From Solwaraspora sp. WMMD406 (GTDB lineage: Bacteria; Actinomycetota; Actinomycetes; Mycobacteriales; Micromonosporaceae), in contig NZ_JARUBF010000001.1 of the NCBI RefSeq assembly GCF_029626025.1, forward strand, positions 5,550,001 to 5,614,000: a DNA stretch of 64,000 nt, in the 5' to 3' direction. The position numbers and the translations under genes were made by a program. Every line of letters begins with the position of its first letter. The first letter of the stretch is position 1. The notes below the pieces were generated by a model that made no database searches, was not told the origin of the DNA, and saw only the letters and a program-made list of their open reading frames with translations. Positions 3,900 to 59,352 of this stretch are shown in pieces.

Positions 3900-3959
3900 T
3901 CAGCGTACTGCGGTGCCTCGGCTGAGCGGTCAGCGTAGTCCGGTGCCTCGGCTGAGCGC
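3900..3959. repeat. Tandem duplication spanning the ddl stop codon
   Basis: Two 30-base units with two mismatches lie side by side. The unit at 3930-3959 contains the last codons and stop of ddl, and the unit at 3900-3929 is an extra copy that repeats the stop. Confidence 0.85.
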
Positions 3960-5033
3960 GGTGCGGATCAGCCGGTCGACCAGCTTCGGGTATTCCAGGC
4001 CGGTCGCCGCCCACATCCGGGGGAACATCGATGTCGGGGTGAACCCGGGCATCGTGTTGATCTCGTTGAGGTAGATCTGGTCGTCGTCGGTGACGAAGAA
4101 GTCGACCCGGGCGAGTCCGGCGCAGTCGAGCGCGGTGAAGGTCCGGCAGGCGTAGTCCTGGACCTGTTTGACGACGTGCGCGGGTAGTCCGGCCGGGATG
4201 TCGTACTCGCAGGAGTTGTCGAGGTATTTGGCCTCGAAGTCGTAGAACTCGTGGTCGGTGACGACCCGTACCTCGGCCAGCATTGACGCCTCGGGTCCGC
4301 CGCCGGCTTCGCCTTCGATCACGCCGCATTCGATCTCGCGGCCGACGATCGCCGCTTCGACGAGCACCTTGGGGTCGATCTCGCGGGCGGTGGCGACGGC
4401 GGCGTCCAGGTCGGCCCAGTCGGAGACCTTGGTGATGCCGTACGAGGATCCGGCGCGGGACGGTTTGACGAAGACGGGCAGGCCGAGGCGGTCCTTGTCG
4501 GCTTCGCTGAGGCTGACCCCGGCGCGCAGTACGGCGTACGGGCCGGTGGGGATGCCCTCGACGGTGGCCAGCTTCTTGGTGAATTCCTTGTCCATGGCGG
4601 CGGCGGAGGCGAACACCCCGGCCCCGACGTACGGGATGCCGGCCATTTCCAGCAGTCCTTGGATGGTGCCGTCTTCGCCGTACGCGCCGTGCAGGGCGGG
4701 GAAGACGACGTCGACGCCGGCGAGGGCGGCGGCCGGGCCGGTGGTCGGGTCGAGCACCATGATCCCGTTGTCGGTGGGGTCGGCGGGCAGCACCACGGCC
4801 GAGCCGGAGCGGTCGGTGATCTCCGGCAGTCGCCGGTCGGTGATCGCCAGTTCGGTGGTGTCGCCGGTGGTGAGCACCCATCGTCCGGCGCGGGTGATGC
4901 CGACCGGGACGATCTCGTACTCGTCGGTGTCGAGGGCGGCGAGGATGCTGCCGGCGCTGACGCAGGAGATCGCGTGTTCGGTGCTGCGGCCACCGAAGAC
5001 GATGGCGACGCGGGTCTTCCGTGGGCTTGTCAC
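3930..5033 (-). CDS. ddl: D-alanine--D-alanine ligase
   Basis: Ddl joins two D-alanines with ATP for peptidoglycan precursors. The 367-residue length is normal. It has an N-terminal VAIVFGGRSTEHAISC (residues 8-23), LHGAYGEDGTIQGLLE (the HG(x)GEDG motif), VFVKPSRAGSSYGITKV in the ATP-grasp domain, LARVDFFVTDDDQIYLNEINTMPGFT with the metal ligands, and TSMFPRMW. Residues GSS and the Tyr of SSYGI agree with a D-Ala-D-Ala rather than D-Ala-D-Lac ligase, though this is only suggestive. The last nine codons and the stop are duplicated downstream (3900-3929). Confidence 0.95.
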   Translation of the reverse strand: MTSPRKTRVAIVFGGRSTEHAISCVSAGSILAALDTDEYEIVPVGITRAGRWVLTTGDTTELAITDRRLPEITDRSGSAVVLPADPTDNGIMVLDPTTGPAAALAGVDVVFPALHGAYGEDGTIQGLLEMAGIPYVGAGVFASAAAMDKEFTKKLATVEGIPTGPYAVLRAGVSLSEADKDRLGLPVFVKPSRAGSSYGITKVSDWADLDAAVATAREIDPKVLVEAAIVGREIECGVIEGEAGGGPEASMLAEVRVVTDHEFYDFEAKYLDNSCEYDIPAGLPAHVVKQVQDYACRTFTALDCAGLARVDFFVTDDDQIYLNEINTMPGFTPTSMFPRMWAATGLEYPKLVDRLIRTALSRGTGLR

Positions 5034-5387
5034 AGGGGTGCCTTTCGTTCGCGGCTCACGCGCGTGCCGGACGGGTCGGGGGGTGCCCGGCGGGTACGCG
5101 GTTCACGTCTTCGCGCTCACGCGGGTGACCCTACTCTGCGTGCCTGCCCGCCGGGCCCTGACCGGCCCGGGTTCCTCCTGATGATGCGAGGAGTGACCGG
5201 CGGGTCGCTGTGGCGGCCGGGCGAGGCGAGTCCGGGGCGAGTCCGAGACGAGGCCGGGGTGCGGCCGGGGTGGCTGATGGAAACAGCTTCGGTCTCGACG
5301 ACGAACCCAAAAACATCGATATTCATCTATAGTTGGCGATGCGTTCACCCGCACGTACCGTCCCATCCATCCGAGTCAGGACAGCCC
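5034..5387. other. 354-base divergent intergenic region (ddl / carbohydrate-binding protein)
   Basis: No gene is seen here. The stretch near 5301-5340 is AT-rich for this genome and includes TATAGT at 5328-5333, a plausible -10 element for the gene starting at 5388. It marks the left junction of the accessory block that separates ddl from gpsA. Confidence 0.5.
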
Positions 5388-7226
5388 ATGAGACGCATCC
5401 CCCTGAGAGCCATCATCCCCGCCGGGCTCGCGCTCGCTCTGCTCGCCGGCCCGCTGCAGGCACCGGCAGCCGCGCAGGCGACCGTCCCGATCACGCTGAC
5501 CGGTGCCAGCGCCACCAGCCCCAGCGCCGACGTCACCATCGCCGGGCGGGCGGTGACGATCACCGCGCCGGGCACCTACGAGATCAGCGGCACCCTCAAC
5601 GACGGCTACCTTGACGTCGACACCTCCGCCTCCGGCACCGTCCATCTGATCCTCAACGGTGCCGCCATCACCAACTCCAGCAACGCGCCACTGCAGATCA
5701 GCGACGCCGACGACGTGGTGATCACCCTCGCGGCCGGCACCACCAGCCGGCTCACCGACGCGGCCACCTACGTCTATCCCGACCCGGACACCGACGAGCC
5801 GAACGCCGCCCTGTTCAGCCGCGCCGACCTGCGGATCACCGGAGCCGGGGCGCTGGCCGTACGGGGCAACGCGTACGACGGCATCACCAGCAAGGACGGC
5901 CTGGTCATCGAGTCGGGCACGATCACGGTGAACGCGGTCGACGACGGCATCCGGGGCAAGGACTTCCTCGACATCACCGGCGGAAACGTCGACGTGACCG
6001 CCGGCGGCGACGGCATCAAATCCGACGACACCGAAGCGGACCGGGGCCGACTCACCATCACCAACGGCACCGTACGGGTGAACGCCGGTGACGACGCCGT
6101 CAAGGGCGAGAACACGGTCGCCATCTCCGGCGGCTCCGTCACCGTCACCAGCTCGTACGAGGCGATCGAGAGCCGGCAGATCACCATCAGCGGCGGCGCC
6201 GTCGACGTCACCGCCCGCGACGACGCGATCAACGCCGTCGAGGACGGGTACGGCGATTTCGAGGTGGCGCCGAACGCGTTCATCCGGTTCACCGGCGGGA
6301 CCACGCTGGTCAACTCCAGCATCGACGGCATCGATTCCAACGGTACGGTGACCTTCGCCGGCGGCACGGTGGTGGTCAGCGGGCCGAGCAGTGGCAGCCC
6401 CGGTGAGGGGGCGATCGACTCGAACGGCGCGGTCCACTTCACCGGCGGCACGATGCTCGGTGCCGGGTCGACCGCGCTGGCGGTGCTGAGCCTGCCGCCG
6501 ACCACGGGCCAGGGCTGGGTGGCGCCGCAGCTGTCCAGCGGCCAGTCGGCCGGCACCCTGCTGCATCTGGTCTCCGGCGGCCAGGTGCTCGTCTCCTACC
6601 GCGCTCCGAAGGCGTTCCGGGAGGTGGTCTTCTCGTCGAACCGGATCCAAAATGGGCAGACCTACGAGGTCTACCGCGGCGGCAGCCTCTCCGGCGCGAC
6701 GACCGGCGGCATGGCCACCACCGGCGGCAGCATCGCCGGTGCCACTCGGCTGATGACCGTGACCGCCGGGCAATATCGTGGCGGTCTGGTCGGCTGGCCG
6801 CCCGGCGGACCGGGCTGGCCGCCGTTGCCGACCCCGTCGCCCACCGCACCGCCGCCGAACCCGACCACCCCACCGCCGAACCCGACCACGCCGCCGCCGA
6901 ATCCGACGACCCCGCCGCCGGGCGCTGCCGGCTGCACGGCGACCTATTCGATCCTGGGCCAGTGGCAGGGCGGTTTCCAGGGTGACGTACGGGTCACCGC
7001 CGGCTCGTCGGCGATCAGGGGTTGGCGGGTGACCTGGACCTTCGCCAACGGTCAGACGATCAGCCAGTCCTGGAACGCGACGATCACCGCCGCTGGTTCG
7101 ACGGTGACGGCGACCAACGTCTCCTTCAACGGTTCACTGGGTGCCGGGGCCAGCGCGACGTTCGGGTTCATCGGCACCTGGAACGGCAGCAACACCGCCC
7201 CGACCCTGACCTGCACCGCGACCTGA
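5388..7226 (+). CDS. Secreted carbohydrate-binding protein: Cthe_2159-like beta-helix plus CBM2
   Basis: This 612-residue protein has a signal peptide (MRRIPLRAIIPAG then a hydrophobic run, cleavage near APAAAQA). Residues about 40-420 form repeated strands rich in Asn/Asp-Gly turns (KDGLVIESGTITVNAVDDGI, GGDGIKSDD, GDDAVKGENTV), matching the right-handed beta-helix carbohydrate-binding family typified by Cthe_2159. A Pro-rich linker with three PPPNPTT units follows. The last ~100 residues are a family 2 carbohydrate-binding module: opening Cys, QWQGGFQGDV, RGWRVTWTF, QSWNA, GFIGTWNGSN and a closing Cys. No catalytic domain is seen. The likely role is adhesion to cellulose or pectin. The ATG at 5388 is preceded by GTCAGG. 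Confidence 0.88.
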   Translation: MRRIPLRAIIPAGLALALLAGPLQAPAAAQATVPITLTGASATSPSADVTIAGRAVTITAPGTYEISGTLNDGYLDVDTSASGTVHLILNGAAITNSSNAPLQISDADDVVITLAAGTTSRLTDAATYVYPDPDTDEPNAALFSRADLRITGAGALAVRGNAYDGITSKDGLVIESGTITVNAVDDGIRGKDFLDITGGNVDVTAGGDGIKSDDTEADRGRLTITNGTVRVNAGDDAVKGENTVAISGGSVTVTSSYEAIESRQITISGGAVDVTARDDAINAVEDGYGDFEVAPNAFIRFTGGTTLVNSSIDGIDSNGTVTFAGGTVVVSGPSSGSPGEGAIDSNGAVHFTGGTMLGAGSTALAVLSLPPTTGQGWVAPQLSSGQSAGTLLHLVSGGQVLVSYRAPKAFREVVFSSNRIQNGQTYEVYRGGSLSGATTGGMATTGGSIAGATRLMTVTAGQYRGGLVGWPPGGPGWPPLPTPSPTAPPPNPTTPPPNPTTPPPNPTTPPPGAAGCTATYSILGQWQGGFQGDVRVTAGSSAIRGWRVTWTFANGQTISQSWNATITAAGSTVTATNVSFNGSLGAGASATFGFIGTWNGSNTAPTLTCTAT

Positions 7227-7395
7227 CCTGGGCTGGCGGGCGCGGCTGGCCCGGTCGGGCAGTGCCCGCGTCCGTCAGCGTCGACGCTCACCACGTGATC
7301 GGTAGAGTCCGGCACGATCTGGTGCCGGGCTCCACCGGCGGCCGGCCGTCGCGCTGCTCGCATGAGCGTCTCGCTTTCTCGCTTCGACCTTCCTC

Positions 7396-7752
7396 TCACT
7401 CCTTCGTTGGAGACGTCGTCAAGTCGGCCATTCGCATACCGTTCGGAGTGTTCTTCAGCCACAGTTCGTCGAATCCACCGAGGCGCCAACCTGTTTCGTC
7501 GCACCGGGCTACGACTTTGGCAATCACCTCAGCAACCGCACCTTTCCAGGGTACGAATCCAGCCTCAGCGAGCTCGCCTACCTCAGCTAGTTCCCGAGTC
7601 AAGAGATAGTCCAGCACAGCCACGACCTCTTCCCTGAACGCATCTCGCGGCTCCGGCACGGCCTTCTTTGCCTCACCGAACAGCGCATGGAGCGCCACCC
7701 AGTCATCCGCGCCATACCAAAGAATGCGTTGAGCGATTCTTTCAGTGCCCAT
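7396..7752 (-). CDS. Putative immunity-type protein at the end of an orphan toxin cassette
   Basis: This 118-residue soluble protein begins MGTERIAQRILWYGADDW and ends NTPNGMRMADLTTSPTKE. I do not recognise a named family. The ATG at 7752 overlaps the stop of a decayed toxin-like frame (TGA at 7742-7744), as immunity genes often do with their toxins. Base composition is less GC-rich than the housekeeping genes. The frame is open further upstream, but that part is out of phase with the toxin remnant and has no separate support. Immunity is inferred from position only. Confidence 0.55.
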   Translation of the reverse strand: MGTERIAQRILWYGADDWVALHALFGEAKKAVPEPRDAFREEVVAVLDYLLTRELAEVGELAEAGFVPWKGAVAEVIAKVVARCDETGWRLGGFDELWLKNTPNGMRMADLTTSPTKE

Positions 7753-8505
7753 CGATATGCACCTTAAACTGATCGACACCGGAGAAGATATCGATTGTTT
7801 CACCTCCTGAAGCCGAGGTCGTCCTCCATTGGATAAGGGCCGTTGATCGTTCGAGTCCACACAACCCGAATGATCTAGACGATGCCGGCCGCCGTCTCCA
7901 CAAACGACACGCCCGAGTTGATCACACCCCGGCCGTCACACCACGTTACATAGACAAAGCCCGGTTTCGAATCGGCGGACCCCTTTCGGAAAGTCCTCCT
8001 CGTCGAGGTAGTTGTCGGATCTTGCTGATAGTCGGCCGGCGATTACGACGGCCTTGGCTGTGGACTTGGTAGTGGACACGCCTCTACCGACATGCCCCAA
8101 GAAGCTGATCCCGGTCCACGTGCATCCTGAGACGGAGCCTTGGCCGCAGGCTTTGGTGTCAGCTATCCCGGTCAGTTCGAGAAAGATCATGTCCAGGATC
8201 GCATCTTGCTGCCGGTTGTATTCCCGGCAGATCTCTGGCGCGTTGTAGCAGATGGTGTTCCAGATGACCCAGCGCTGCTCCTGGGGGTTTAGCGCCGCGA
8301 ATCCAACGTTGTCGTATTCCAGTTTGGCAACATTGTCAAGTGTGACACTTGCCTTGCCGTCACGCGCCTTACCGGGGTTGCTTGGGGTCGGCACCGGGTG
8401 CCTGGCTACCCTTGCCCGAAGAATTAGCCGTCTTGCCCGATGTGCCCGATGTAGTGATCTTATTTTTTTCCGGATGGCATTTCGTTCACAGAGCCCCGAT
8501 CCCAA
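7742..8505 (-). pseudogene. Decayed orphan RHS toxin tip
   Basis: This is a displaced C-terminal cassette of an RHS protein. Its upstream end (8433-8503) is a near copy of the linker in the intact RHS gene (10119-10188), but with seven A instead of six, which puts a stop in the RHS frame. Further down another frame encodes LEYDNVGFAALNPQEQRWVI, then ICYNAPEICREYNRQQ and ADTKACGQGSVSGCTWTG, the kind of cysteine-bearing pre-toxin segment seen in actinobacterial RHS proteins. The last recognisable peptide is DIFSGVDQFKVHIDGH before the TGA at 7742. At least two frame changes are needed to join the pieces. The enzymatic activity of the tip is not identifiable. Confidence 0.6.
8433..8503. repeat. 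RHS linker homology arm, orphan copy (partner at 10119-10188)
   Basis: The 71 bases align with 10119-10188 with eight mismatches and one extra A in the poly-A run (poly-T on the plus strand). This is the segment that encodes the SGK-rich linker just after the RHS core in the intact gene. Confidence 0.8.
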
Positions 8506-8727
8506 CGCCACGCCCGAGCGGCACTGACGCGGGCGGTCGCCGCCCTCGACGAAGTCCTCGAGTTCGCCCCGGCCGACGCCACCGAGATCCCGGCGGACGC
8601 CTTCACCAGCGACACCGGACGACAGACACGGGTACGGAAACCAGGCCGCTTCCACCGCGACCGCCTCACCGCCCTCCGCACCACGTACGCCATCCTTCTG
8701 CACGGCAACGAACCCGACGAGGAGTAG
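8506..8727 (+). pseudogene. 5'-truncated gene fragment, unknown family
   Basis: A 73-codon plus-strand frame ends at TAG 8725-8727 and has strong coding character: third positions are nearly all G or C. The peptide includes ALDEVLEFAPADATEIPADA, FTSDTGRQTRVRKPGRFHRD and RLTALRTTYAILLHGNEPDE. It has no start codon and begins exactly where the RHS linker homology on the other strand ends, so the 5' part was probably removed by recombination. I do not recognise the family. Confidence 0.5.
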
Positions 8728-8729
8728 GC

Positions 8730-8945
8730 ACGTCATCGGATAAACTCCAACAGGAAATGTCGGATCTCGTCCACAACCCCAGGCAAGTTCTAGGGACAGA
8801 AGTCGCCCATCCGGAAGCCGGAATATCAGCTTACCGACGTCGTTGCTTGCCGCTTCTGAAACACGGACACATCTCCACCGAGCAGTTCTTGAATATCACG
8901 AGCAACAGCCTCACATCCGCTCGAATTGCAAATATCGGACGGCAT
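8730..8945 (-). pseudogene. Frameshifted small gene remnant, possibly an immunity gene
   Basis: From ATG 8945 one frame reads MPSDICNSSGCEAVARDIQE then LLGGDVSV. A neighbouring frame continues with VSEAASNDVGKLIFRLPDGR, then LLSLELAWGCGRDPTFPVGV and YPM. A single frame change near 8850 would join the two into a protein of about 70-90 residues. It lies between the Imm31-like gene and the orphan toxin tip, so an old immunity gene is likely, but the family is not recognised. Confidence 0.35.
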
Positions 8946-9070
8946 TCTCAATTTGACACAAGTTCACCACAGCCGCCCATATTGGCGACGAGGACTGGCG
9001 TCTTGGAGGAACAACGCCAGGGCCGTAAAAGGAACCTCAAGACAAACCCAAATCCTGAACGACTTCCACG

Positions 9071-9310
9071 CTATACAGCCTCATTGGGATAGTACGAGTC
9101 GCGACTTCGCATTTTTCCTGTAGGTCGGATATCCTTATCATCATACACAACGACCTGGTCCTCTCCATCTAGGATTACTGCGTAGCTGTTCCCCCCACTA
9201 GCATTCTCCGATACGCCAACTATGGCACCGAACCGACCATCTTGCCCGGACTGTTGCGGATCACGTAGGACGACAATTTCGGAATAAAAAGGGATCAGCT
9301 CGTTTTCCAT
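9071..9310 (-). CDS. Imm31-like immunity protein
   Basis: This 79-residue acidic protein follows the RHS toxin gene on the same strand. Its pattern FYSEIVVLRD, GAIVGVSENASGGNSYAVIL, then VVYDDKDIRPTGK is that of the Imm31 family of polymorphic-toxin immunity proteins. It is expected to bind and neutralise the toxin tip in the producing cell. The ATG at 9310 is preferred, with GGAAGG ten bases upstream. A GTG six codons earlier is possible. GC content is low, like the toxin tip, which suggests the two moved together. The gap to the RHS stop is about 140 bases. Confidence 0.7.
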   Translation of the reverse strand: MENELIPFYSEIVVLRDPQQSGQDGRFGAIVGVSENASGGNSYAVILDGEDQVVVYDDKDIRPTGKMRSRDSYYPNEAV

Positions 9311-22723: not shown

Positions 22724-23386
22724 ATGGTGGGCGTGGGCGACGTGACCTGGTCCGTGGTGCTACCGGTCAAACGACTGTCGGCGGCCAAGAGCCGGCTGCG
22801 CGGCGCGCTGGACGGGGTGTGCCACGAGGAGTTGGCGCTGGCGCTGGCCTGCGACACCGTCGCCGCGGTGCTCGGCTGCCCGCTGGTGGCCGAGGCGGTG
22901 GTGGTCACCGCCGACCCGACCGCCGCCGCCGCGTTGGCCGCGCTCGGTGCCCGTACGGTCGACGAACCGGCCCGGCCCGGGTTGAACGCCGCCCTGGCGC
23001 ACGGCGCCGCTTCGGCCGACGGAGGCGCAGCCGGGCGGCCAGTGGCGGCACTCACCGCCGACCTGCCGGCGCTGCGTCCGGCCGAGTTGACCGCCGCGTT
23101 GACCGCTGTCCGCGCCAGCGCCGGGGCCGCTCCGGCCGGTTGGTTCGTGCCGGACGCCGCCGGCACCGGCACCGTGCTGCTCGCCGCGCCGGCCGGCACG
23201 GCGCTGCGGCCCTGCTTCGGCGTGGACTCGGCCCGCCGGCACACCGCGTCCGGCGTGGTACGCCTCGACGGCGACTGGCCGACGTTGCGCCGCGACGTCG
23301 ACACCGCCGCCGATCTGGCCGAGGCGACGGCGCTCGGGCTGGGCCGGCACACCGCCACGGTCGGCCGCGTCGGCGTACGGCGCTGA
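22724..23386 (+). CDS. cofC: 2-phospho-L-lactate guanylyltransferase (F420 biosynthesis)
   Basis: CofC activates 2-phospholactate or phosphoenolpyruvate with a nucleotide triphosphate for coenzyme F420 assembly. The 220-residue protein has SVVLPVKRLSAAKSRLRGAL (residues 9-28, the nucleotide-binding PxKxxxxAKSRL), CDTVAAVLGC, VVTADPTAAAAL and LTADLPALRPAELTAAL (the ADLP motif). Third positions are almost all G/C. The exact start is unsure between ATG 22724 and GTG 22733. The last codons and stop are tandemly repeated downstream up to the next gene. Confidence 0.92.
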   Translation: MVGVGDVTWSVVLPVKRLSAAKSRLRGALDGVCHEELALALACDTVAAVLGCPLVAEAVVVTADPTAAAALAALGARTVDEPARPGLNAALAHGAASADGGAAGRPVAALTADLPALRPAELTAALTAVRASAGAAPAGWFVPDAAGTGTVLLAAPAGTALRPCFGVDSARRHTASGVVRLDGDWPTLRRDVDTAADLAEATALGLGRHTATVGRVGVRR

Positions 23387-23456
23387 GCCACGTCGGAGTA
23401 CGGCGCTGAGCCGCGTCGGAGTACGGCGCTGAGCCGCGTCGGAGTACGGTGCTGAC
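23371..23456. repeat. Tandem 23-bp repeats starting at the cofC stop region
   Basis: CGGCGTACGGCGCTGAGCCA plus CGT is followed by two near-identical units and a partial fourth. The first unit contains the final codons and TGA of cofC (23384-23386), and each later unit repeats the GCTGA. The array ends exactly at the next start codon. Confidence 0.9.
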
Positions 23457-23709: not shown

Positions 23710-26202
23710 GTGACGCCCGCCCCCTCCCGGCGCGCCGCCGCACGTCCGCGCCGCGCAGCCGACCAGACCGCCGCCGCCGACGCCGCCGCGACCCCGACGC
23801 CTCGGCCGACCCGACGCCGCAGCGCCAACGGCAACGGTCGCAGAGCCGGCGCGACCGAGCCGGCGCCGGAAGCGGTGGCCGAGACCGCTGCGACGGCCGC
23901 CGCGTCACCCTTGCCGGACGGCACTCCCGACCCGGCGGACCCGACCGTCCCGGTGGACGCCAGCACCGAACCGGTCGAGGCCGAACCCGAACCGGTCGAC
24001 GCTGCCGACCCGGAACCGGCCGACGCCGACCCGGAACCGGCCGACGCCGACCCGGAACCCATCAACGCCAGCACCGAACCGGCCGACACCGAACCGGCCC
24101 ACACCCATCCGGCCGACACCGAGCCGTACGTCCCGGCACCGCTGCCGCCGGACCGGTTCCTCAACCGGGAGTTGTCCTGGCTCGACTTCAACGCCCGGGT
24201 CCTCGAACTCGCCGAGGACCCGCAGACCCCGCTGCTGGAACGGGCCAAGTTCCTGGCCATCTTCGCCAGCAACCTCGACGAGTTCTACATGGTCCGCATC
24301 GCCGGCCTGAAACGGCGCCAACAGGCCGGCCTGCCGGTGCGCGGCGGCGACCGGCTGCCGCTGCGGACCCAGCTGGAGCTGATCGCCGGCAAGACCGCCG
24401 GCCTGGTCGCCCGGCACGCCCGCTGCTTCACCGAGGAGGTCCGCCCGCAGCTGGCCGCCGAAGGCATCCACCTGATCCGCTGGAGCGATCTGGTGGCCGG
24501 CGAACGGGAGGAGCTGCGCACCTACTTCCGGGAACACATCTTCCCGGTGCTGACCCCACTGGCCGTCGACCCGGCGCACCCGTTCCCGTACATTTCCAGC
24601 CGGTCGTTGAACCTGGCCGTCGCGGTCCGCGACCCTAACGGCGGCCCGGAGCTGTTCGCCCGGGTCAAGGTGCCCAACAACGTGCCCCGGTTCGTGGTGG
24701 TCAGCCAGGACGGCCAAGGTGCTCGGTTCCTGCCGGTGGAGGACCTGATCTCCGCCCAGCTCGGGCAGCTGTTCTCCGGCATGCAGGTGGTGGAGTGCCA
24801 CCTGTTCCGGGTGACCCGCAACGCCGACTTCGAAGTCGACGAGGACCGCGACGAGGACCTGCTGCAGTCGCTGGAACGGGAACTGGCCCGCCGTCGGTTC
24901 GGCCCGCCGGTCCGGCTGGAGGTCGCCGCCTCCATTTCCGACCACATGCTCGACCTGCTGGTCCGCGAGCTGGACATGGACAGCCACGACGTGCTGCGGG
25001 TACCCGGTCTGCTCGACCTGTCCGCGCTGTGGCAGGTCTTCGAAGCCTCCGACCGGCCCGATCTCAAGGACCGGCCGTTCGTGCCGGCCACCCACCCCCG
25101 GCTGGTCGAGGGCGAGGTGCCGCGTAGCGTCTTCGCCACCCTGCGCGACGGCGACATCCTGGTGCACCACCCGTACCACTCGTTCTCCACCAGCGTGCAG
25201 CGTTTCATCGAGCAGGCCGCCGCCGACCCGCTGGTCCTGGCGATCAAGCAGACGCTGTACCGCACCAGCGGCGACTCCCCCATCGTCGACGCGCTGATCG
25301 AGGCCGCCGCCGCCGGCAAACAGGTGGTGGTGCTGGTCGAGGTCAAGGCCCGCTTCGACGAACAGGCCAACATCGGCTGGGCGCGGATGCTGGAACGCGC
25401 CGGCTGCCACGTCGTGTACGGCCTGGTCGGGCTCAAGACCCACTGCAAGACCGCCCTGGTGGTACGCCAGGAAGGCAACCAGATCCGCCGCTACTGCCAC
25501 ATCGGCACCGGCAACTACCACCCCAAGACCGCCAGGCTGTACGAGGACTTCGGCATGCTCACCGCCGACCCGGAGGTCGGCGCCGACCTGACCGACCTGT
25601 TCAACGTGCTGACCGGCTACAGCCGGCAGACCGCGTACCGGCGGCTGCTGGTCGCCCCGCACGGCGTGCGCAGCGGGCTGATCGACCGCATCGAACGCGA
25701 GATCGCCCACGTACGGGTCGGCCGCCCCGGGCTGGTGCAGATCAAGGTGAACTCGCTGGTCGACGAGGACATCGTGGACGCGCTGTACCGGGCCTCGCAG
25801 GCCGGCGTACAGGTCGATCTGCTGATCCGGGGCATGTGCACGCTGCGGCCGGGCGTGCCGGGGCTGTCGGACAACATCCGGGTCCGGTCGATCCTCGGCC
25901 GGTTCCTCGAACACTCCCGGGTCTTCCGGTTCGGCAACGACGGCGACACCGAGTTCTGGATGGGTTCGGCGGACCTGATGCACCGCAACCTGGACCGCCG
26001 GGTCGAAGCCCTGGTGCAGGTCACCGACCCGGTGGCCCGCGCCGAGCTGGACCAGGTGATGACCGACGCGTTCAGCCCCGAGTGCGAGTCGTTCGAGCTG
26101 CACCCGGACGGCACCTGGACCCGACACCACTCCACCGAGGGCCGCCCCCTGATGCACCTGCAGGAACGGCTGCTGCGCCGGTTCGTCGGCGCCGCCAAGT
26201 AG
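23710..26202 (+). CDS. ppk1: Polyphosphate kinase 1 with a long acidic N-terminal extension
   Basis: PPK1 makes polyphosphate from ATP. The conserved enzyme begins near residue 147 ([20 protein letters not shown]). [55 protein letters not shown] (phosphorylated-histidine region) and [20 protein letters not shown] (second histidine) are all present, so the enzyme looks active. The first ~145 residues are Ala/Arg-rich and then a Pro/Glu/Asp repeat ([16 protein letters not shown]) not needed for the fold. A GTG start at 23710 is the only reasonable one, with no good ribosome binding site. A candidate PHO box precedes it. The 3' end is duplicated. Confidence 0.95.
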
Positions 26203-26226
26203 GGGTTCGTCGGGGCCGCCAGGTAA
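26180..26226. repeat. Tandem duplication spanning the ppk1 stop codon
   Basis: GGTTCGTCGGCGCCGCCAAG plus TAG ends ppk1. A 23-base near copy at 26204-26226 ends with its own stop, TAA. Period 24, a few mismatches. Confidence 0.85.
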
Positions 26227-28798: not shown

Positions 28799-29437
28799 TC
28801 AGCGGGTGGTTTTGCGGGCCGCCGACTTCTTCGCCGGGGCCTTCTTGGCGGCGGTCGACTTCGCCGCCGACTTGGTCGCGGTCGACTTGGTCGCCGTCGT
28901 CTTCTTGGCCGCCGACTTCTTGGCGGCCGTGGCCGGAGCCGACTTGGTCGCCGTGGTCTTCTTGGCCGCGCTGGTGCTGGCCCGCTTCGCCGGCGCCTTG
29001 GTGGCGGTCGACTTGGCCGCCGTGGACTTGGCGGCCCCGGTGGCCTTGGCCGTGGTCGACTTGGCGGCGGTGGATTTGGCCGCCGTCGCCCGCGACGTGG
29101 TCGACTTGGCCGCCGTGGACTTGGCCGCCGTCGCCGACTTGGCCGCAGTGGCCTTGGGAGCCTTGCCGCTGGCCACCATGTCCTTGAAGCCGGCACCGGG
29201 CCGGAAGACCGGCACGGATGTCTTCTTGACCTTCACCGACTCGCCGGTACGCGGGTTACGCGCTGTTCGAGCCGCTCGGACGCGCTTCTCGAACACTCCG
29301 AAACCGGTGATACCCACCCGGTCGCCCTTGGTCACCGCGGCCTGAACCTCAGCGAGGACCGCGTCGAGCGCGGTCGTCGCGGTCTTACGGTCCCCCAGGC
29401 GAGCAGCGAGCGCGTCGATGAGCTCTGCCTTGTTCAC
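28799..29437 (-). CDS. hup: HU-family nucleoid protein with Lys/Ala-rich tail
   Basis: This 212-residue HupB-type protein has an N-terminal HU domain ([59 protein letters not shown], residues 1-90). A ~110-residue tail of [15 protein letters not shown] and similar units follows, like mycobacterial HupB. The tail resembles histone H1 and is known in mycobacteria to be modified and to add DNA contacts. The GTG at 29437 is chosen: GGGAGG lies about six bases upstream and the protein then starts like all HUs. The same frame is open for 51 codons upstream, but that part is not HU-like. Confidence 0.95.
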
Positions 29438-29658: not shown

Positions 29659-29701
29659 GATCGGCGCTATGCGACCACCCAGATCGGCGCTATGCGACCA
29701 C
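29659..29701. repeat. Tandem duplication spanning the leuD stop codon
   Basis: GATCGGCGCTATGCGACCAC occurs exactly twice with period 23 (29659-29678 and 29682-29701). The right copy contains the last codons and TAG stop of leuD (29690-29692), and the left copy repeats them. Confidence 0.9.
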
Positions 29702-31800: not shown

Positions 31801-32487
31801 ATGAGCGGTGTCGGCGTTCTCGACAAGGCGGTGGTCATCCTCGCGGCCTGCGTCGACGGCGCCAGCCTGGCCGAGCTCGTCGAACGGACCAAGCTACCCA
31901 GAGCCACCGCGCACCGGTTGGCCCAGGCCCTGGAGATCCACCGGATGCTGGTCCGGGACACCCAGGGACGCTGGCGACCCGGCCCGCGACTGGGTGAGTT
32001 GGCCAACGCCGCCCCTGACGTCCTACTCACCGCCGCCGAGCCGCTGCTGGCCGCGCTGCGCGACGCCACCGGCGAAAGCGCCCAGCTCTACCTGCGCCGC
32101 GCCGACGAACGGATCTGCGTCGCCGCCGCCGAACGGGCCAGTGGGCTGCGCGACACCGTGCCGGTCGGCTCGGTGCTGCCGATGACCGCCGGATCCGCCG
32201 CCCAGATCCTGCTCGCCTGGGAGCCACCCGAGGCGGTCATGCCGCTGCTGCCCCGCTGCAAGTTCACCGGCCGCACCCTGGCCGAGGTCCGCCGCCGAGG
32301 CTGGGCGCAGAGCGTCGCCGAGCGGGAAGCCGGAGTGGCCAGCGTCTCCGCGCCGATCCGTGACCGCACCGGCCGGGTGATCGCCTCCGTCAGCGTGTCC
32401 GGCCCGATCGAGCGCCTCGGCCGGCGCCCCGGCGAACGGCACGCGATGGCCGTCGTCCGGGCCGGACAACGGCTGTCCGGCCTCTGA
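31801..32487 (+). CDS. ndgR: IclR-family regulator, NdgR/AreB type
   Basis: This 228-residue IclR regulator has an N-terminal winged helix (VGVLDKAVVILAACVDGASL, ELVERTKLPRATAHRLAQAL) and a C-terminal effector domain (LRRADERICVAAAERASGLR, VGSVLPMTAGSAAQILLAWE). In Streptomyces the homologue beside leuCD (NdgR/AreB) controls leucine and other amino acid genes. ATG 31801 matches the usual start MSGVGVLDKA. An earlier ATG at 31777 is too close to the GGGAGG before it. The short gap to leuC (49 bases) must hold both promoters and any operator. The 3' end carries three extra copies of its last 21 bases. Confidence 0.92.
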   Translation: MSGVGVLDKAVVILAACVDGASLAELVERTKLPRATAHRLAQALEIHRMLVRDTQGRWRPGPRLGELANAAPDVLLTAAEPLLAALRDATGESAQLYLRRADERICVAAAERASGLRDTVPVGSVLPMTAGSAAQILLAWEPPEAVMPLLPRCKFTGRTLAEVRRRGWAQSVAEREAGVASVSAPIRDRTGRVIASVSVSGPIERLGRRPGERHAMAVVRAGQRLSGL

Positions 32488-32549
32488 CAACGGCTGTCCG
32501 GCCTCTGACAACGGCTGTGCGGCCGCTGACAACGGCTGTGCGACCTCTG
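32466..32549. repeat. Four tandem 21-bp units spanning the ndgR stop codon
   Basis: ACAACGGCTGTCCGGCCTCT plus G is the end of ndgR and its stop overlaps the next unit (TGA 32485-32487). Three further units follow, the second exact and the last two with a few changes. Each carries CTGA or CTGG at the matching place. Confidence 0.92.
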
Positions 32550-42597: not shown

Positions 42598-42636
42598 CGC
42601 CTGACAGTACCGGCGCTCGCGTCACCAGCCGCGATG

Positions 42637-42668
42637 TCATCCGCCGACGGGGTCATCCGCCGCGACGG
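42637..42668. repeat. Imperfect duplication at the protease gene stop
   Basis: TCATCCGCCG-CGACGG (gene end, stop at 42653-42655) is preceded by TCATCCGCCGACGG at 42637. One short indel. This is weaker than the other stop-spanning duplications. Confidence 0.6.
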
Positions 42669-51331: not shown

Positions 51332-51372
51332 GTTCAGCCGAGCGGCTTCGCCCGCAGCGCGACCGGTCCGGA

Positions 51373-52961: not shown

Positions 52962-53993
52962 TCAGCCCGTGGCGTGGGCGGCGAGCCGGTCGCCGATCTC
53001 GGCGGTACGCAGCGGGGCTCCCGGGGTACGGGAGGCCAACTCGGCCGCGACCGCCCCGGCTACTCGCTCGGCCGCAGCGGGATGTCCCAGGTGATCGAGC
53101 ATCAGGGAGGTGGACAGGACGGCGGCGACCGGGTCGGCGACGCCCTTGCCCGCGATGTCCGGAGCGGATCCGTGCACCGGCTCGAACATGGACGGGTACC
53201 GCCGCTCGGGATTGATGCACCCGCTGGCGGCCAGTCCGATCCCACCGGTCACCGCCGCGGCGATGTCGGTGAGGATGTCACCGAACAGGTTGTCGGTGAC
53301 CACGACGTCGTACCGCTGAGGGTGGGTGACCATGAACATGGCCGCGGCGTCGACGTGCTGGTATTCGGTTTCGATCCCGGGGAAGTCCGCCTTGACGGCG
53401 GCGAACGCGCGCGACCACAGCGAACCCGCGTGGGTCAGCACGTTGGTCTTGTGCACCAGTGTCACCTTGCGCCGCTCGCGGCGCTGCGCCCGGGTGAACG
53501 CGTCCCGGATCACCCGTTCGACGCCGTGCCGGGTGTTGAGGCTCTCCTCGGTGGCGACCTCGGCCGGCGTGTCGCGGTGCAGGGTGCCCCCGGCGCCGGC
53601 GTACAGACCCTCGGTGCCCTCGCGGACCACCACGAAGTCGATCTCGCCGGGCTTGACCCCGCCGAGCGGGCTGGCCGTACCCGCCCAGAGTCGGGCCGGA
53701 CGCAGGTTGACGTACTGATCGAAGGCGAAGCGGAGTTTGAGCAACAGGCCTCGCTCCAGGACGCCGGGCGGGACCGTGGGGTCACCGACCGCGCCGAGCA
53801 GGATGGCGTCGTGACCGGCGAGTTCGTCGAGCACCGAGTCGGGCAGCACTTCGCCGGTACGGTGGTAACGGGCGGCACCGAGGTCGTACTCGGTGGTCTC
53901 CACACCGGGGAGCACCGCGTCGACGACCTTGCGGGCCTGCGCGGTCACCTCGGACCCGATGCCGTCGCCGGCCACCACCGCGATCCGCGCCAT
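52962..53993 (-). CDS. leuB: 3-isopropylmalate dehydrogenase
   Basis: This 343-residue NAD-dependent enzyme oxidises 3-isopropylmalate in leucine synthesis. [99 protein letters not shown] and [20 protein letters not shown] are all in place. ATG 53993 matches the family start. GTG at 53999 with GAGGGA upstream is an alternative. An IS4-type element is inserted about 130 bases upstream, possibly disturbing its promoter. No stop-spanning repeat is present. Confidence 0.96.
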
Positions 53994-54181
53994 CGCCACG
54001 TCCACTCCCTCGCCCACATCGGTCAACGCCTAGCGAACGTTAAGCGATCATCCCGGTTGCCGGTACGGACGTCCCACCATTCGGACTGCATCGGACCAGA
54101 TCCACGCCTTCCGGGCTAGGGCCAACGCCGCTCGGTTAAGCCGTTGCGGCAGCGGTCAAGGGTGTGTCGGTCGGACATGGG

Positions 54182-54245
54182 AAAGCGGAGTTCCTGTAAC
54201 GAGGTGAGTCACTCCAAGACGCCTCGAGACCAGGAACTCCGCTTT
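54182..54245. repeat. 15-bp inverted repeat over the transposase start
   Basis: AAAGCGGAGTTCCTG and its exact complement enclose 34 bases. The right arm reaches the transposase TTG start, so a read-through transcript would hide the start codon in a hairpin, as known for other IS4-type elements. Confidence 0.8.
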
Positions 54246-55601
54246 GGTCGATCAGATTGCCATAACTCGGACGGTGCGGGTAGCCGCAGGTGTGTTCGCG
54301 CCGGGTCATCTGGGTGAGTTGACCCAGTTCCTGCCCTTCGAGATGGTCGATGAGGTCCTTGCCGCGACCCGTCGTACCCAGCAGCGGATCCGGCTACTCC
54401 CGGCCCGGGTCGTGGTCTACCTCGTCCTCGCAGGCTGCTTGTTCGCCGAACTCGGCTACGGGCAGGTGTGGCGGAACTGACCGCCGGTCTGACCGGGCTG
54501 GATCTGACCGAGCCGGCCTCAGGCACGTTACGGGAGGCGCGTCAGCGGCTCGGGTCGACGCCGTTGCGGGCCCTGTTCGATCTGCTGCGCGGCCCGGCGG
54601 TCACCACGGCGACGCACGCCGTGCGGTGGCGGGGCCTGCTGGTGACAGCGATCGACGGGACCACGATGTCGGTCGCCGACGCCGAGGCGGTCCGGGTCCG
54701 TTACCGCAAACAACGGGGTAACCACGGCGGCGCGGGCTACCCGGCACTACGGCTGAGTGTCCTGCTGACCTGCGGCACCCGCTCGATCATCGACGCCGTG
54801 TTCGCTCCACTCGGCACCAGCGAACTCGACCAGGCCCGCTCCCTGGCCCGGAGCCTGGCCGCCGGGATGCTGCTGTTGGCCGACCGTAACTACGCCGCCG
54901 CCGACCTCATCCAGACACTCGCCGCCACCAGGGCCGACCTGCTGATCCGCTGCAAGAACGGCCGCCGCCTGCCGGTGATCCGCCGGTACCACGACGGATC
55001 CTGGCTGTCGACCATCGGCACGGTACGGGTGCGGGTCGTGGACGCTGAGATCAGCGTCCAGACCATCGACGGCGTCCGCACGGGCGGCTACCGGCTGATC
55101 ACCACCCTGCTCGACCCACGCACCCACCCGGCCGGCGAACTGATAAAGCTGTACCACCGCCGGTGGGAGGTCGAAACCGCCTACCTGGAGATCAAATCCA
55201 GCATCCTCGGCGGCCGGGTCCTGCGCGCGCGTACTCCCGACGGCATCGACCAGGAGGTCTACGCCCTGCTGGTCGTCTACCAGATCCTGCGTAACGCCAT
55301 GACCGACGCCACCGACAGCCGGCCCGGCACCGGCCCTGACCGGGCCAGCTTCACCACCGCCCTGAACGCCGCCCGCGACCAGGTCACCCACGCCGCCGGC
55401 GTCCTCGCCGACACCGTCATCGACCTGGTCGGCGCCATCGGTCGTGCGGTTCTGGCCCACCTGCTACCTGAGCGTCGGATCCGGGTGAAGACCCGCATGA
55501 TCAAACGCTCGAACTCCAAGTACCAAGCCCGCGGACCCAACGTAGACCGACGCAGCTACAAAGCCACCATAGCCATCGATATAATCACAAACACTTGCTA
55601 A
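54244..55601 (+). pseudogene. IS4-family transposase, frame disrupted
   Basis: The first frame (54244-54480) reads VDQIAITRTVRVAAGVFAPG to LAGCLFAELGYGQVWRN and stops. The second (54468-55601, 377 codons) reads AELTAGLTGLDLTEPASGTL onward. In intact relatives known to me GYGQVW runs on into LTAGL in one frame, so a one-base loss near 54475 is the simplest explanation. Catalytic residues in the second part are intact: Asp in VTAIDGTTMSVAD, Asp in LLLADRNYAAADL and the YHRRWEVETAYLEIK (Y-R-E-K) signature. A programmed frameshift or restart at GTG 54468 cannot be excluded. Confidence 0.8.
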
Positions 55602-55855
55602 CCATCCACCCGCCCTAACCGAGCGGCGTTGGGGCTAGGGCAGGTCCGGAACTGCCAGACGCCCAGCAAGCACACAGCGGGGCTTAACACCACGCTCACC
55701 CCACCCGACTACCGTAGGTGACGACCGGGAACCGGGCACCGGTGAAGGAGACACGACGATGGCGACACCCCGCGCCGCCCAGCCAGTCCCACCCGACCTC
55801 GAGGTGGGTCCGGTCGGCCCGGCACACCGCGCGACGACGCGGTTCGCCGCCGGTC

Positions 55856-56623
55856 GTGGTCGCCCGGCACACCGTCACCACCTCGACCAGCGACTACCAA
55901 CTGATCCTCGTGGCCGGCGAGCGAATCGGTCGGCGCGGCCTGAGTGAGGCGATCAGCGACGCCGTCGCCGAGCTACGGGCCATCGACGTCACCTACAGCC
56001 CGCTACGGCGCAACAGCCTGGTCTCGCTGCTGCGCCGGGGCGAGGTCTCCGCCGAGGTCTACCCGCCGCTGGCGGACATCGTCGGACGGTGCGAGGCGAT
56101 GCGCACGGCGACCGACGGATGGTTCGACCCATGGGCGGTCCCCGGCGGCTTCGACCCGGCGGGCATGATCAAAGGATGGGCGATCGAACGGGCGGCGAGC
56201 CGGTTACGCGCCGCCGGGATCTGCGACTACGCCGTGGTCAGCGGCGGTGACCTGACCGTACGTGGACACGCGCCGCACGGCGGGCCGTGGCGGATCGCGC
56301 TGCGGCAGTCCTCGTCCGCCGCGTCGGGCGGCACCCGGACGACGATCGTGACCATGGTGGACGGCGCGATCGGCACGTCCGGGATGACCAACCGGCGTGG
56401 GCCGGTGATCGACCCGCGAACCGGCGCGGCGGTGCACCGGGCCGGCGCGGCGATGGTGCTCGGCGCCGACCTGGCCATCGCCGACGGGTACGCCACGGCG
56501 CTCTACGCCGCCGGGACCGCCGGCCACGCCTGGTTTCCCACAGTGGACGGCTATCGGCCCCTCGGGCTGGTGGATGTGGACAGTGCCCCGTCGGCGGCCG
56601 GGCGACTGGTGGACCCCGACTGA
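55856..56623 (+). CDS. ApbE-like FAD:protein FMN transferase (start or frame uncertain)
   Basis: ApbE enzymes attach FMN from FAD to Thr/Ser of target proteins. This ~255-residue protein has ELRAIDVTYSPLRRNSLVSL, GWFDPWAVPGGFDPAGMIKG then WAIERAASRL, VVSGGDLTVRGHAPHGG, and the late GTSGMTNRRGPVIDPRTGAA, all matching the family. GTG 55856 is the first good start in this frame. However, a strong ribosome binding site (AAGGAG) precedes ATG 55759 in another frame, and a single-base change near 55851 would join that start to the ApbE frame. It lies 215 bases from the IS right end. Confidence 0.75.
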   Translation: MVARHTVTTSTSDYQLILVAGERIGRRGLSEAISDAVAELRAIDVTYSPLRRNSLVSLLRRGEVSAEVYPPLADIVGRCEAMRTATDGWFDPWAVPGGFDPAGMIKGWAIERAASRLRAAGICDYAVVSGGDLTVRGHAPHGGPWRIALRQSSSAASGGTRTTIVTMVDGAIGTSGMTNRRGPVIDPRTGAAVHRAGAAMVLGADLAIADGYATALYAAGTAGHAWFPTVDGYRPLGLVDVDSAPSAAGRLVDPD

Positions 56624-57027
56624 CATCCGGCCCCGGCCAGCTCCCGCGACCTCGGCAATGATCACGGGAGCTGACCGGCGACACGTGCGCTTGGCGCGCG
56701 CACCGGGGGTGCCGGGTCACCCGACGGACGGCGGTGCGGTCGGACGTCACCCGAAGACGTGACCGCACCGAGACGACCTGCGGGCGAACCGCCTCCACAA
56801 GCTATCGATTCCGTACAACCGGGCGCAAGGCTGCGAATTCTCCGCCCGTACCGCAGCCGCAGCAGACCGCGCCACAGCCGCATCGGACCGACACCGGAGC
56901 CGGCGCGGCACGGACCGGTGCGGAGCCGGCGCGGCACGGGCCGACACCGCGACGGCGAGCGGGGCCGGACACACCGAGTAGGGACTGGGCTGGAAAGGAC
57001 GACGGGGCGGATGGCACGCTGTCCGGC
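56624..57027. other. 404-base gap without a recognised gene
   Basis: There are open frames on both strands but none with a ribosome binding site or protein-like pattern. The sequence is GC-rich without clear repeats or hairpins. Confidence 0.45.
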
Positions 57028-57396
57028 GTGACATTCGATCTCGTCGTATGGGCGTTGGACGATCGGTCCACGTCGGCGGACGTACACGCCGCGCATGAGT
57101 TGTGTCGGCAGGGCGAGCATAGCGATGGTGCCGCCGACCGCCGGATAACGTCGTTCTATGCCGCGCTGACCGCCCACTATCCCGATCGGGGTGCCGATTC
57201 GACCAGCGACAAATCTCCGTGGGCAAACGTTCCACTACACACCGCGACCGACCATGTCGAAATGAACCTGCGGCACAGCTGCGACGACGAGGTCCTGTTG
57301 GCCATCGAACGGCTGGCCCAGGAGCACCGGCTGCTGCTGCTCGACCCGCAGGACGGGTCGGTGTATCCGCCAGCCGCCAGCGCGCCGGCCCACTGA
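57028..57396 (+). CDS. Hypothetical protein of a widespread uncharacterised family (122 aa)
   Basis: The protein starts MTFDLVVWALDDRSTSADVH and ends LAQEHRLLLLDPQDGSVYPP. The closing LLLLDPQDGSVY is a motif I know from small bacterial proteins of unknown function that often sit near immunity-type genes. HVEMNLRHSCDDEVLLAIER forms the middle. GTG 57028 is the natural start. It converges on serA across a strong hairpin. Confidence 0.65.
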   Translation: MTFDLVVWALDDRSTSADVHAAHELCRQGEHSDGAADRRITSFYAALTAHYPDRGADSTSDKSPWANVPLHTATDHVEMNLRHSCDDEVLLAIERLAQEHRLLLLDPQDGSVYPPAASAPAH

Positions 57397-57408
57397 ACTG
57401 GCCCGATC

Positions 57409-57448
57409 CCGGGGTGGTCCGGCGACGGCGGCTGCCGGACCACCCCGG
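57409..57448. terminator. Bidirectional hairpin before the serA 3' end
   Basis: CCGGGGTGGTCCGGC and its exact complement form a 15-bp stem with a ten-base loop, between convergent genes. Confidence 0.9.
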
Positions 57449-57453
57449 ACCGA

Positions 57454-59052
57454 TCACTCCTCTCGGAGGTCCACCGCGCTGGCGGCGGTCGCCCCGATCG
57501 AACTGGCGGCGGTGCCCAACGACTCCGCTCCGACCGCCGAGTCGACGGTGAGCGTCATCAGGGCCTCACCGCCGGCGGTACGGCGGGCCACCTGCATCGC
57601 GGCGATGTTGACGCCGGCCTCGCCGAGGATCGAGCCGATGGTGCCGACCACGCCGGGCCGGTCGGTGTAGCGGAAGAAGATCAGGATGCCCTCGGCGGTC
57701 AACTCCAGGTCGAAGCCGTCCACCTCGGTGAGCCGGATCAGGTCCCGGCCGGCGGCGGTCACGACGGTGCCGGAGACGCTGACCGTACGGCCGTCGGGCA
57801 GCACACCCCGGACGGTGACCAGGTTGGGCTGCTCGACGGTGTCGGCGTCGGCCACCAGGTCCACCTCGACGCCCCGGTCGGCGGCCAAGTGCGGCGCGTT
57901 CACGTAGGTGACCTGCTCCTCCACCACCGAGCTGAACAGGCCCTTGGTCGCGGCCAGCTTCAACACCGACACCTCGTTGGCCACGATTTGACCGCGTACC
58001 TCGACGGTGACGCTGGCGGCGACCACGCCGGCGACCGCAGTGAAGACCTTGCCGAGCTTCTCGGCCAGCGGCAGCAGCGGTCGGACGTCCTCCGCGACCA
58101 CACCCCCGGCCTGGACGTTGACCGCGTCCGGTACGAACTCGCCCTGCAGGGCCAGCTTGACGCTGCGGGCCACCGCCAACCCGGCCTTGTCCTGCGCCTC
58201 GGCGGTCGAGGCACCCAGGTGCGGGGTGGCGACCACGTTGTCGAAGGCGAACAGCGGCGACGAGGTGCACGGCTCCTTGGCGTACACGTCGACGCCGGCG
58301 CCGCCGACCCGGCCCTCGGCGAGGGCGTCGGCAAGGGCCTGTTCGTCGACCAGACCGCCCCGGGCGGCGTTGACGATCCGGACCCCGGGCTTGACGATCG
58401 CCAGTTCCTTCTCACCGATCAGACCCAGGGTCTCCGGGGTCTTGGGCAGGTGGATCGAAATGAAGTCGCTCTCGCGCAGCAGTTCTTCCAGTCCGACCAG
58501 GCGCACGCCGAGCTGCGCGGCCCGAGCCGGCTGGATGTACGGGTCGTACGCGATCAGCCGGGTCCCGAACGCGGCGATCCGCTGGGCGAAGAGCACCCCG
58601 ATGCGTCCGAGGCCGACCACACCGACCGTCTTGCCCTGGATCTCGACGCCGGTGTACTTGGACCGCTTCCACTCGCCGGCCTTCAGCGCGGCGCTGGCGC
58701 TCGCGGTGTTGCGGGCCACCGCCAGCAGCAGTGCGATCGCCTGTTCGGCGGCCGAGACGATGTTGGAGGTGGGTGCGTTGACCACCATCACGCCACGGGC
58801 CGTCGCGGCAGGCACCTCGACGTTGTCGAGGCCGACCCCGGCCCGGGCGACCACCTTGAGCCGTGGTGCGGCGGCCAGGGCCTCGGCGTCGATCTGGGTG
58901 GCGCTGCGCACGATCACGGCGTGGGCGGCGGCGAGTGCGGCGAGCAGGGCGGGACGGTCGGTGCCGTCGACATGCCGGACATCGAAGTCGTGGGCGAGCA
59001 CGTCGATCGCGGCGGGCGCGAGCTCTTCGGCGATCAGTACGACAGGAATCAT
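57454..59052 (-). CDS. serA: D-3-phosphoglycerate dehydrogenase
   Basis: This 532-residue enzyme opens serine synthesis by oxidising 3-phosphoglycerate. It has the NAD-binding VGVVGLGRIGVLFAQRIAAF, the signature ISIHLPKTPETLGLIGEKEL, and catalytic VRIVNAARGGLVDEQALADA. It also has an intervening (ASB) domain (about residues 320-450) and a C-terminal ACT domain (GVVGTIGSILGEAGVNIAAM). The long actinobacterial form with ASB and ACT domains is serine-regulated in M. tuberculosis. It lies downstream of the mpgS gene with a 265-base gap. Confidence 0.97.
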   Translation of the reverse strand: MIPVVLIAEELAPAAIDVLAHDFDVRHVDGTDRPALLAALAAAHAVIVRSATQIDAEALAAAPRLKVVARAGVGLDNVEVPAATARGVMVVNAPTSNIVSAAEQAIALLLAVARNTASASAALKAGEWKRSKYTGVEIQGKTVGVVGLGRIGVLFAQRIAAFGTRLIAYDPYIQPARAAQLGVRLVGLEELLRESDFISIHLPKTPETLGLIGEKELAIVKPGVRIVNAARGGLVDEQALADALAEGRVGGAGVDVYAKEPCTSSPLFAFDNVVATPHLGASTAEAQDKAGLAVARSVKLALQGEFVPDAVNVQAGGVVAEDVRPLLPLAEKLGKVFTAVAGVVAASVTVEVRGQIVANEVSVLKLAATKGLFSSVVEEQVTYVNAPHLAADRGVEVDLVADADTVEQPNLVTVRGVLPDGRTVSVSGTVVTAAGRDLIRLTEVDGFDLELTAEGILIFFRYTDRPGVVGTIGSILGEAGVNIAAMQVARRTAGGEALMTLTVDSAVGAESLGTAASSIGATAASAVDLREE

Positions 59053-59282
59053 CGGTCCTCATGGTCGTCTGGGACGGGTATCTGCGGCGGATCTCGGCGG
59101 CGGTGGGGCGCCGCTTCGCGCCCTGCGCTTCCTCCCCGGCGGGTCTCGCGCGGCACGGAGGCGGCCTACTCGCGATCGTAGGCGCACCCGTGGGCGGCAT
59201 GGCTCACGGTCGGGGGTGAGTGCCCTCACAAACCAGACCTAATGCCTGTACGGCGAGTAGGCGACGCCCGGGTGAATCACCG

Positions 59283-59352
59283 TCAGCCAGCGGCCGCCGG
59301 TCCGACCGGTCGGCGGATCAGCCAGCGGCCGCCGGTCCGACCGGTTGGCGGG
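59283..59352. repeat. Tandem duplication spanning the mpgS stop codon
   Basis: A 35-base unit beginning TCAGCCAGCGGCCGCCGGTC occurs twice (59283 and 59318) with two differences. The right copy contains the last codons and stop of mpgS (59318-59320), and the left copy repeats them. Confidence 0.9.

What the first reader, a model, noticed from the sequence alone, without database searches (positions are those of the whole stretch)
3900..59352. Stop-codon-spanning tandem duplications at the ends of many genes
Six genes end in a short tandem repeat whose unit contains their last few codons and the stop codon: ddl (3900-3959, period 30), cofC (23371-23456, period 23, three extra units), ppk1 (26180-26226, period 24), leuD (29659-29701, period 23), ndgR (32466-32549, period 21, three extra units) and mpgS (59283-59352, period 35). 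The protease gene at 42653 shows a weaker case (period 16). The units are unrelated in sequence and the periods are not all multiples of three. So this is not one mobile repeat and not simply back-up stop codons in frame. A neutral reading is that slippage duplications happen everywhere and survive only where they add non-coding DNA. A more interesting reading is a local mechanism acting at gene ends, or a role in 3'-end processing. I do not know of a description of this pattern.
Basis: partly seen in the sequence, partly recalled or inferred. Interest (0 to 1): 0.72.

Follow-up and report, generated by a model that had tools for sequence, protein, structure and literature searches.

The report
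Ordinary tandem duplications at gene ends
Roughly one gene end in twenty-three in the sampled part of this actinobacterial genome carries a short tandem duplication that includes the stop codon; the repeats are real and recent, but they sit where other insertions and deletions also accumulate, so they look like ordinary copying errors that survive where they do no harm.

Summary
In detail: all six named genes end in a tandem array whose unit carries the stop codon. Shuffled gene ends gave 0 such arrays in three trials, against 63 real ones among 1543 gene ends. In 2.01 Mb of this genome 66 of 1543 stops (4.3%) lie in such an array, 4-7 times what a flat spread over intergenic DNA predicts. The excess is not specific to stop codons. 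Units starting 0-10 bp after the stop are as dense, and density then falls with distance in proportion to other indels measured at array-free gene ends (fit p=0.56, flat p=2e-9). Periods ignore the reading frame, extra stop triplets are not conserved, and overlapping or nearly abutting same-strand genes almost never carry one (1 of 252). Two-copy arrays have excess border microhomology (34 of 59). None of the six arrays was seen in the congeners examined, while mpgS gained different arrays in sister species about 97% identical. Best reading: microhomology-driven slippage, kept where harmless. Why lineages differ in rate remains open.

The parts
3898..3958 (-). ddl end: two 30-bp units, stop at 3930-3932 in the first (gene-oriented) unit
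   Evidence: ddl; absent at the orthologous ends of G002 and G004
23364..23455 (+). cofC end: four 23-bp units, stop at 23384-23386
   Evidence: cofC; absent in the five congener ends read
26180..26225 (+). ppk1 end: two 24-bp units, stop at 26200-26202
   Evidence: ppk1; absent in G002 and G004
29659..29701 (-). leuD end: two 23-bp units, stop at 29690-29692
   Evidence: not listed by TRF; leuD; absent in G002 and G004
32465..32549 (+). ndgR (IclR-type regulator) end: four 21-bp units, stop at 32485-32487
   Evidence: absent in all six congeners
42636..42667 (-). trypsin/HtrA-like protease end: weak 16-bp near-repeat around the stop at 42653-42655
   Evidence: read from the sequence; not detected by TRF nor by my scan
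59283..59351 (-). mpgS end: two 35-bp units, stop at 59318-59320
   Evidence: mpgS; different arrays at the same end in G004 and G001

Best explanation
These are short tandem duplications made by microhomology-driven replication slippage or template switching, some of them then expanded like minisatellites. They survive mainly in the least constrained DNA, from the last codons of a gene to a few tens of bases past its stop. A unit that contains the stop leaves the protein unchanged whatever its length, because the first copy's stop still ends translation; the insertion only lengthens non-coding DNA. Shown here: borders rich in microhomology, a position profile that fits that of other indels, indifference to frame, near-absence at overlapping or abutting same-strand gene ends, and fast turnover. 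Inferred: the slippage step itself, and that the survivors are neutral.
For: Periods of the 66 stop-spanning arrays fall 24/18/24 over residues 0/1/2 mod 3, while 240 of 243 arrays inside called genes are multiples of three. Stop-spanning density equals that of units starting 0-10 bp downstream (2.19 vs 2.48 per 1000 positions, p=0.62). The 95 downstream duplications fit the indel profile of 84 array-free gene-end pairs (p=0.56; flat rejected, p=2e-9); substitutions are also most frequent there (0.19-0.21 at 0-40 bp, 0.136 at 80-200 bp, 0.114 in the last 90 coding bases). Same-strand pairs overlapping or under 6 bp apart carry 1 of 252, wider ones 44 of 729 (p=3e-5). Copies of the stop triplet mismatch as often as the rest of the unit (19 of 339 vs 111 of 2092). 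34 of 59 exact two-copy non-coding arrays have 3 or more nt of border homology against 4.9 expected. Turnover at mpgS.
Against: Against a flat spread over intergenic DNA the excess is 4-7-fold, and indels fall about 5-fold with distance where substitutions fall only about 1.5-fold, so a mutational hot zone may add to tolerance. In ten Micromonospora/Asanoa pairs the indel gradient appears at convergent ends (34 per kb at 0-10 bp to 2.5 at 150-200) but not at same-strand ends (7.4 and 12.3), and no tandem duplication was counted in 135 ends. In the leftmost register first units often end right at the stop; at mid register this is not significant, though the spread is U-shaped (11,7,5,5,13 of 41; KS p=0.39). 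Ancestral -25..+25 stretches of duplicated ends fold slightly better (p=0.006), with higher GC (0.734 vs 0.700). Aligners tend to place gaps at the edge of conserved coding DNA, and requiring exact copies slightly favours arrays with border homology.
Confidence: 0.78

Rival explanations
1. A mutational hot zone at gene ends: where ribosomes leave the transcript, naked RNA, R-loops or terminator hairpins disturb replication and raise the rate of slippage, so duplications and other indels arise there more often.
For: Indel gradient (about 5-fold) steeper than the substitution gradient (about 1.5-fold); the decline is also seen in convergent regions, which should lack promoters; repeated independent arrays at mpgS.
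Against: Substitutions and indels both peak there, as relaxed constraint predicts; the near-absence at overlapping or abutting same-strand pairs is best explained by selection; duplicated ends do not fold significantly more strongly after the stop (p=0.10); long intergenic regions probably hide uncalled genes and tRNAs, which exaggerates the decline (88 of 148 intergenic arrays are multiples of three).
Confidence: 0.15
2. The duplications are selected for a role at the 3' end: spare stop codons, a folded structure after the stop that insulates translation, or 3'-end processing.
For: 66 of 1543 stops carry one, more than a flat expectation.
Against: Periods ignore frame; extra stop triplets mismatch as often as other positions and folding of 0..+50 is not significantly stronger; arrays are not shared between the species compared; no RNA data were available.
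Confidence: 0.06
3. A dispersed mobile repeat family of the mycobacterial MIRU kind inserted at gene boundaries.
For: Location at gene boundaries and tandem copies.
Against: The units consist of their own genes' last codons and differ from each other; outside their own sites the six window units have no copy with fewer than 4 mismatches in 2.01 Mb.
Confidence: 0.01

Closest known systems
Tandem repeats of archaeal Borg elements (PMC9879509; passages read)
   Same: Independently arisen, fast-evolving tandem repeats; those inside genes are multiples of three, most intergenic ones are not; [quoted passage not shown]
   Different: Borg repeats are described as perfect and A-enriched, in extrachromosomal elements; these are GC-rich, often imperfect, and chromosomal.
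Bacterial minisatellites / VNTR loci, for example those of Mycobacterium tuberculosis (PMC2734929; passages read)
   Same: Tandem units of tens of bases between genes, with copy numbers and repeat lengths that change between related genomes.
   Different: There, repeats upstream of fpg1 were linked to its expression; no such link is shown or tested here.
Mycobacterial interspersed repetitive units, MIRUs (PMC12548453 and PMC2734929; passages read)
   Same: Repeats at gene boundaries in actinobacteria.
   Different: MIRUs are one dispersed 40-100 bp family said to insert at start codons; here each unit is local to its own gene end.
Ribosome termination structure, RTS (PMC7518266; abstract and section list read)
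   Same: Located immediately after stop codons.
   Different: Defined by stable conserved folding; duplicated ends here do not fold significantly more strongly than others (p=0.10).

Membership tests
Bacterial minisatellite / short tandem duplication | Head-to-tail copies of a unit of about 10-60 bp | tested here: met
Bacterial minisatellite / short tandem duplication | Presence or copy number differs between close relatives | tested here: met
   mpgS, ndgR and cofC ends in congeners; within-species variation not tested
Bacterial minisatellite / short tandem duplication | Origin by slippage between short homologies | tested here: inconclusive
   border microhomology in 34 of 59 vs 4.9 expected is consistent; the process itself was not observed
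MIRU-type dispersed repeat | One homologous unit at many loci | tested here: not met
   no copy of the six window units with fewer than 4 mismatches elsewhere in 2.01 Mb; the rest of the 7.16 Mb genome was not searched, apart from the cofC end, which had two weak partial matches
Tandem in-frame stop codons as back-up | Extra stops kept in frame and conserved | tested here: not met
   24 of 66 periods are multiples of three; mismatch 5.6% at stop triplets vs 5.3% elsewhere
Ribosome termination structure | Stable fold directly after the stop, stronger than expected | tested here: not met
   mean -19.55 (66 duplicated ends) vs -18.81 kcal/mol (400 sampled others), p=0.10
Borg-type tandem repeats | Perfect, A-enriched units | tested here: not met
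   GC-rich and often imperfect units

The most novel reading that the evidence does not exclude
Gene ends in some actinobacterial lineages are a true mutational hot zone for short duplications and other indels, tied to the point where translation stops, with a lineage-specific rate set by an unknown replication or repair factor.
Probability: 0.13. Interest if true: 0.6.

Novelty: new member of a known kind. Interest (0 to 1): 0.3.

Why it matters
It puts numbers on a simple rule: in this genome insertions and deletions are found mostly in the first tens of bases after a gene, so duplications that swallow a stop codon become common (about 4% of sampled gene ends) without any sign of function. 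It warns against reading meaning into such repeats. If the steep indel gradient proved mutational rather than selective, it would link translation termination to replication errors.

Tried and rejected
Dispersed repeat family: rejected, the units do not recur closely. Spare in-frame stops: rejected. Hairpin or 3'-processing role: no significant folding difference for 0..+50; the collapsed -25..+25 difference (p=0.006) goes with higher GC. Blunt fill-in of staggered breaks as the origin: disfavoured by border microhomology. Exact placement of the unit end at the stop: an excess in the leftmost register, not significant at mid register. A mismatch-repair loss peculiar to this genus: MutS domain in 0 of 7 genus genomes and NucS in 40 of 41 family genomes, so no difference that would explain it; the MutS search covered the genus only. 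Counting new duplications in ten Micromonospora/Asanoa pairs: 0 tandem events in 135 gene ends, uninformative. A terminator/promoter consensus scan of 59200-62600 gave nothing useful.

Literature: ten searches were answered. The phrases 'overlapping the stop codon' and 'includes the stop codon' together with tandem repeats gave 1 unrelated paper and 0 papers. Passages were read in PMC12548453, PMC2734929, PMC9879509 and PMC8228993 and the abstract and section list of PMC7518266; PMC2884548 was seen only in a listing. Considered and not done: an E. coli control, and a check of my gene caller against a curated annotation.

Full report
What was checked. The window is C1:5550001-5614000 of a 7.16 Mb genome, G000; the window is 70% GC. 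The 80 best named matches to its ndgR are of Micromonospora, Actinoplanes and kin, Plantactinospora, Asanoa, Phytohabitans and one Verrucosispora, which I take from recall to be Micromonosporaceae; its own genus was not named by any tool. The six stop-spanning arrays are at the stated places; the seventh (protease) is weak.

Scale. I used 2.014 Mb of the same contig in four blocks, window included (the 40 kb of L042-L043 were fetched but not used), and called genes with a hexamer model of my own. That caller was not checked against a curated annotation; indirect support is that 240 of 243 arrays inside called genes have periods divisible by three. Of 498 arrays detected (period 12-60, identity at least 85%) 24 low-complexity ones were dropped, leaving 474: 243 inside genes, 148 intergenic, 66 stop-spanning (63 plus 3 that also touch a start), 17 others. 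So 66 of 1543 stops carry one. At the intergenic rate spread flat, 9.2 to 16.3 would be expected, depending on the longest intergenic region allowed. Start-spanning arrays number 3 (2 of them also stop-spanning) against 9.9-16.3 expected by the same reckoning, which fits selection against them. Many long intergenic regions probably hide uncalled genes: 88 of 148 intergenic arrays are multiples of three.

Chance. Shuffling codons before and base pairs after each stop gave 0 stop-spanning arrays in three trials, against 63 by the same criterion in the real ends.

Where they are. Oriented by gene, densities per 1000 possible positions are 2.19 (stop-spanning), 2.48 (unit starts 0-10 bp after the stop), 1.18 (10-30), 0.75 (30-60), 0.44 (60-100), 0.41 (100-200) and 0.25 (200-400); a decline is also seen in convergent regions. 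So the feature is the gene end, not the stop codon as such; stop-spanning units are 1.75 times denser than the 0-60 bp average (p=0.003) but not denser than the first 10 bp (p=0.62). Alignments of gene ends among own, G004 and G002 show the same for other indels. To avoid circularity I dropped 32 of 116 gene-end pairs with any array near; the other 84 give 49.8, 21.5, 21.5 and 9.5 indels of 5 nt or more per kb at 0-20, 20-40, 40-80 and 80-200 bp, and 2.3 in the last 90 coding bases; substitution divergence is 0.194, 0.209, 0.151, 0.136 and, in the coding part, 0.114. The 95 downstream duplications (38, 17, 18, 22) fit this indel profile (p=0.56) and reject a flat one (p=2e-9). Cautions: aligners tend to put gaps at the edge of conserved coding DNA; and in ten Micromonospora/Asanoa pairs only convergent ends showed an indel gradient, same-strand ends did not.

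Tests for function. Frame: 24/18/24. Extra stops: mismatch 19 of 339 against 111 of 2092 elsewhere in the unit. Folding of 0..+50: no significant difference, p=0.10; the collapsed -25..+25 stretch is slightly more stable (p=0.006) but also richer in GC. Gene spacing: 1 of 252 at same-strand pairs overlapping or under 6 bp apart, 44 of 729 at wider ones; at convergent ends 21 of 562. These speak for tolerance rather than use.

Origin and age. Of 59 exact two-copy non-coding arrays, 34 have 3 or more nt of border homology against 4.9 expected; 50 of 109 exact non-coding arrays of period 12 or more have at least 2.5 copies. At mpgS, G000, G004 and G001 have different stop-spanning arrays (p35, p22, p24), G003 has one just downstream (p21), G006 one within the last codons (p15), and G002 and G005 none by my scan, though G001, G003 and G004 are about 97% identical there. 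The ndgR array is in none of six congeners; the cofC array is in none of the five congener ends read (G002's match came in pieces and was not read); ddl, ppk1 and leuD arrays are absent from G002 and G004, the only congeners looked at for them. The genus lacks a detectable MutS domain (0 of 7 genomes) and the family has NucS (40 of 41); NucS repair is reported not to correct short indels (PMC8228993, passages), though loops of 12-35 nt would probably escape any mismatch repair (recalled).

Other lineages. Stop-spanning arrays per stop: G002 6/172 and G004 4/129 (same genus), G062 2/138 (same class), G068 1/158 (same phylum); in loci around ndgR only: Micromonospora 4/734, Actinoplanes group 6/306, Plantactinospora 2/34, Asanoa 0/59, Phytohabitans 0/21 (the single Verrucosispora locus was counted with Micromonospora). 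G002+G004 (10/301) are above Micromonospora (p=0.001) but not clearly above the Actinoplanes group (p=0.32). The family loci are one orthologous region in related species, so these are not independent counts. G062 has few stop-spanning arrays but 4 units in the first 10 bp after a stop (3.65 per 1000), so the genus is not unique.

Verdict. A real, well-seen pattern, best explained by slippage plus tolerance. The closest description in print that I found is for Borg elements, where first units lie within or partly within gene ends (PMC9879509, passages). Still open: why indels fall about 5-fold with distance when substitutions fall only about 1.5-fold, and why lineages differ. The odds of the hot-zone reading are kept at 0.13-0.15 for that reason.

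Noticed in passing
60739-60783 and 62466-62526: Two more tandem arrays in the ilv operon that do not contain a stop: p17 starting a few bases after the ilvC stop (60788), and p32 (96% match) between the ilvB stop (62554) and the called start of the next gene (62462).
   Followed up: partly
G000:C1:5358115-5358436: A perfect 57-bp unit repeated over 322 bp in called-intergenic DNA, the longest exact match (265 bp) among the arrays listed.
   Followed up: no
28799-29437: A coding array of 15-bp-based repeats (29004-29174) in a minus-strand gene next to leuD; from recall it looks like the Lys/Ala-rich tail of an HU-type protein (not searched).
   Followed up: no
L113, L114, L116 just after the ndgR stop: In G002, G005 and G006 the ndgR end is followed by an inverted repeat (GACGATCTTGCA ... 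TGCAAGATCGTC or close to it) that is not seen in the printed stretch of the G000 end.
   Followed up: no
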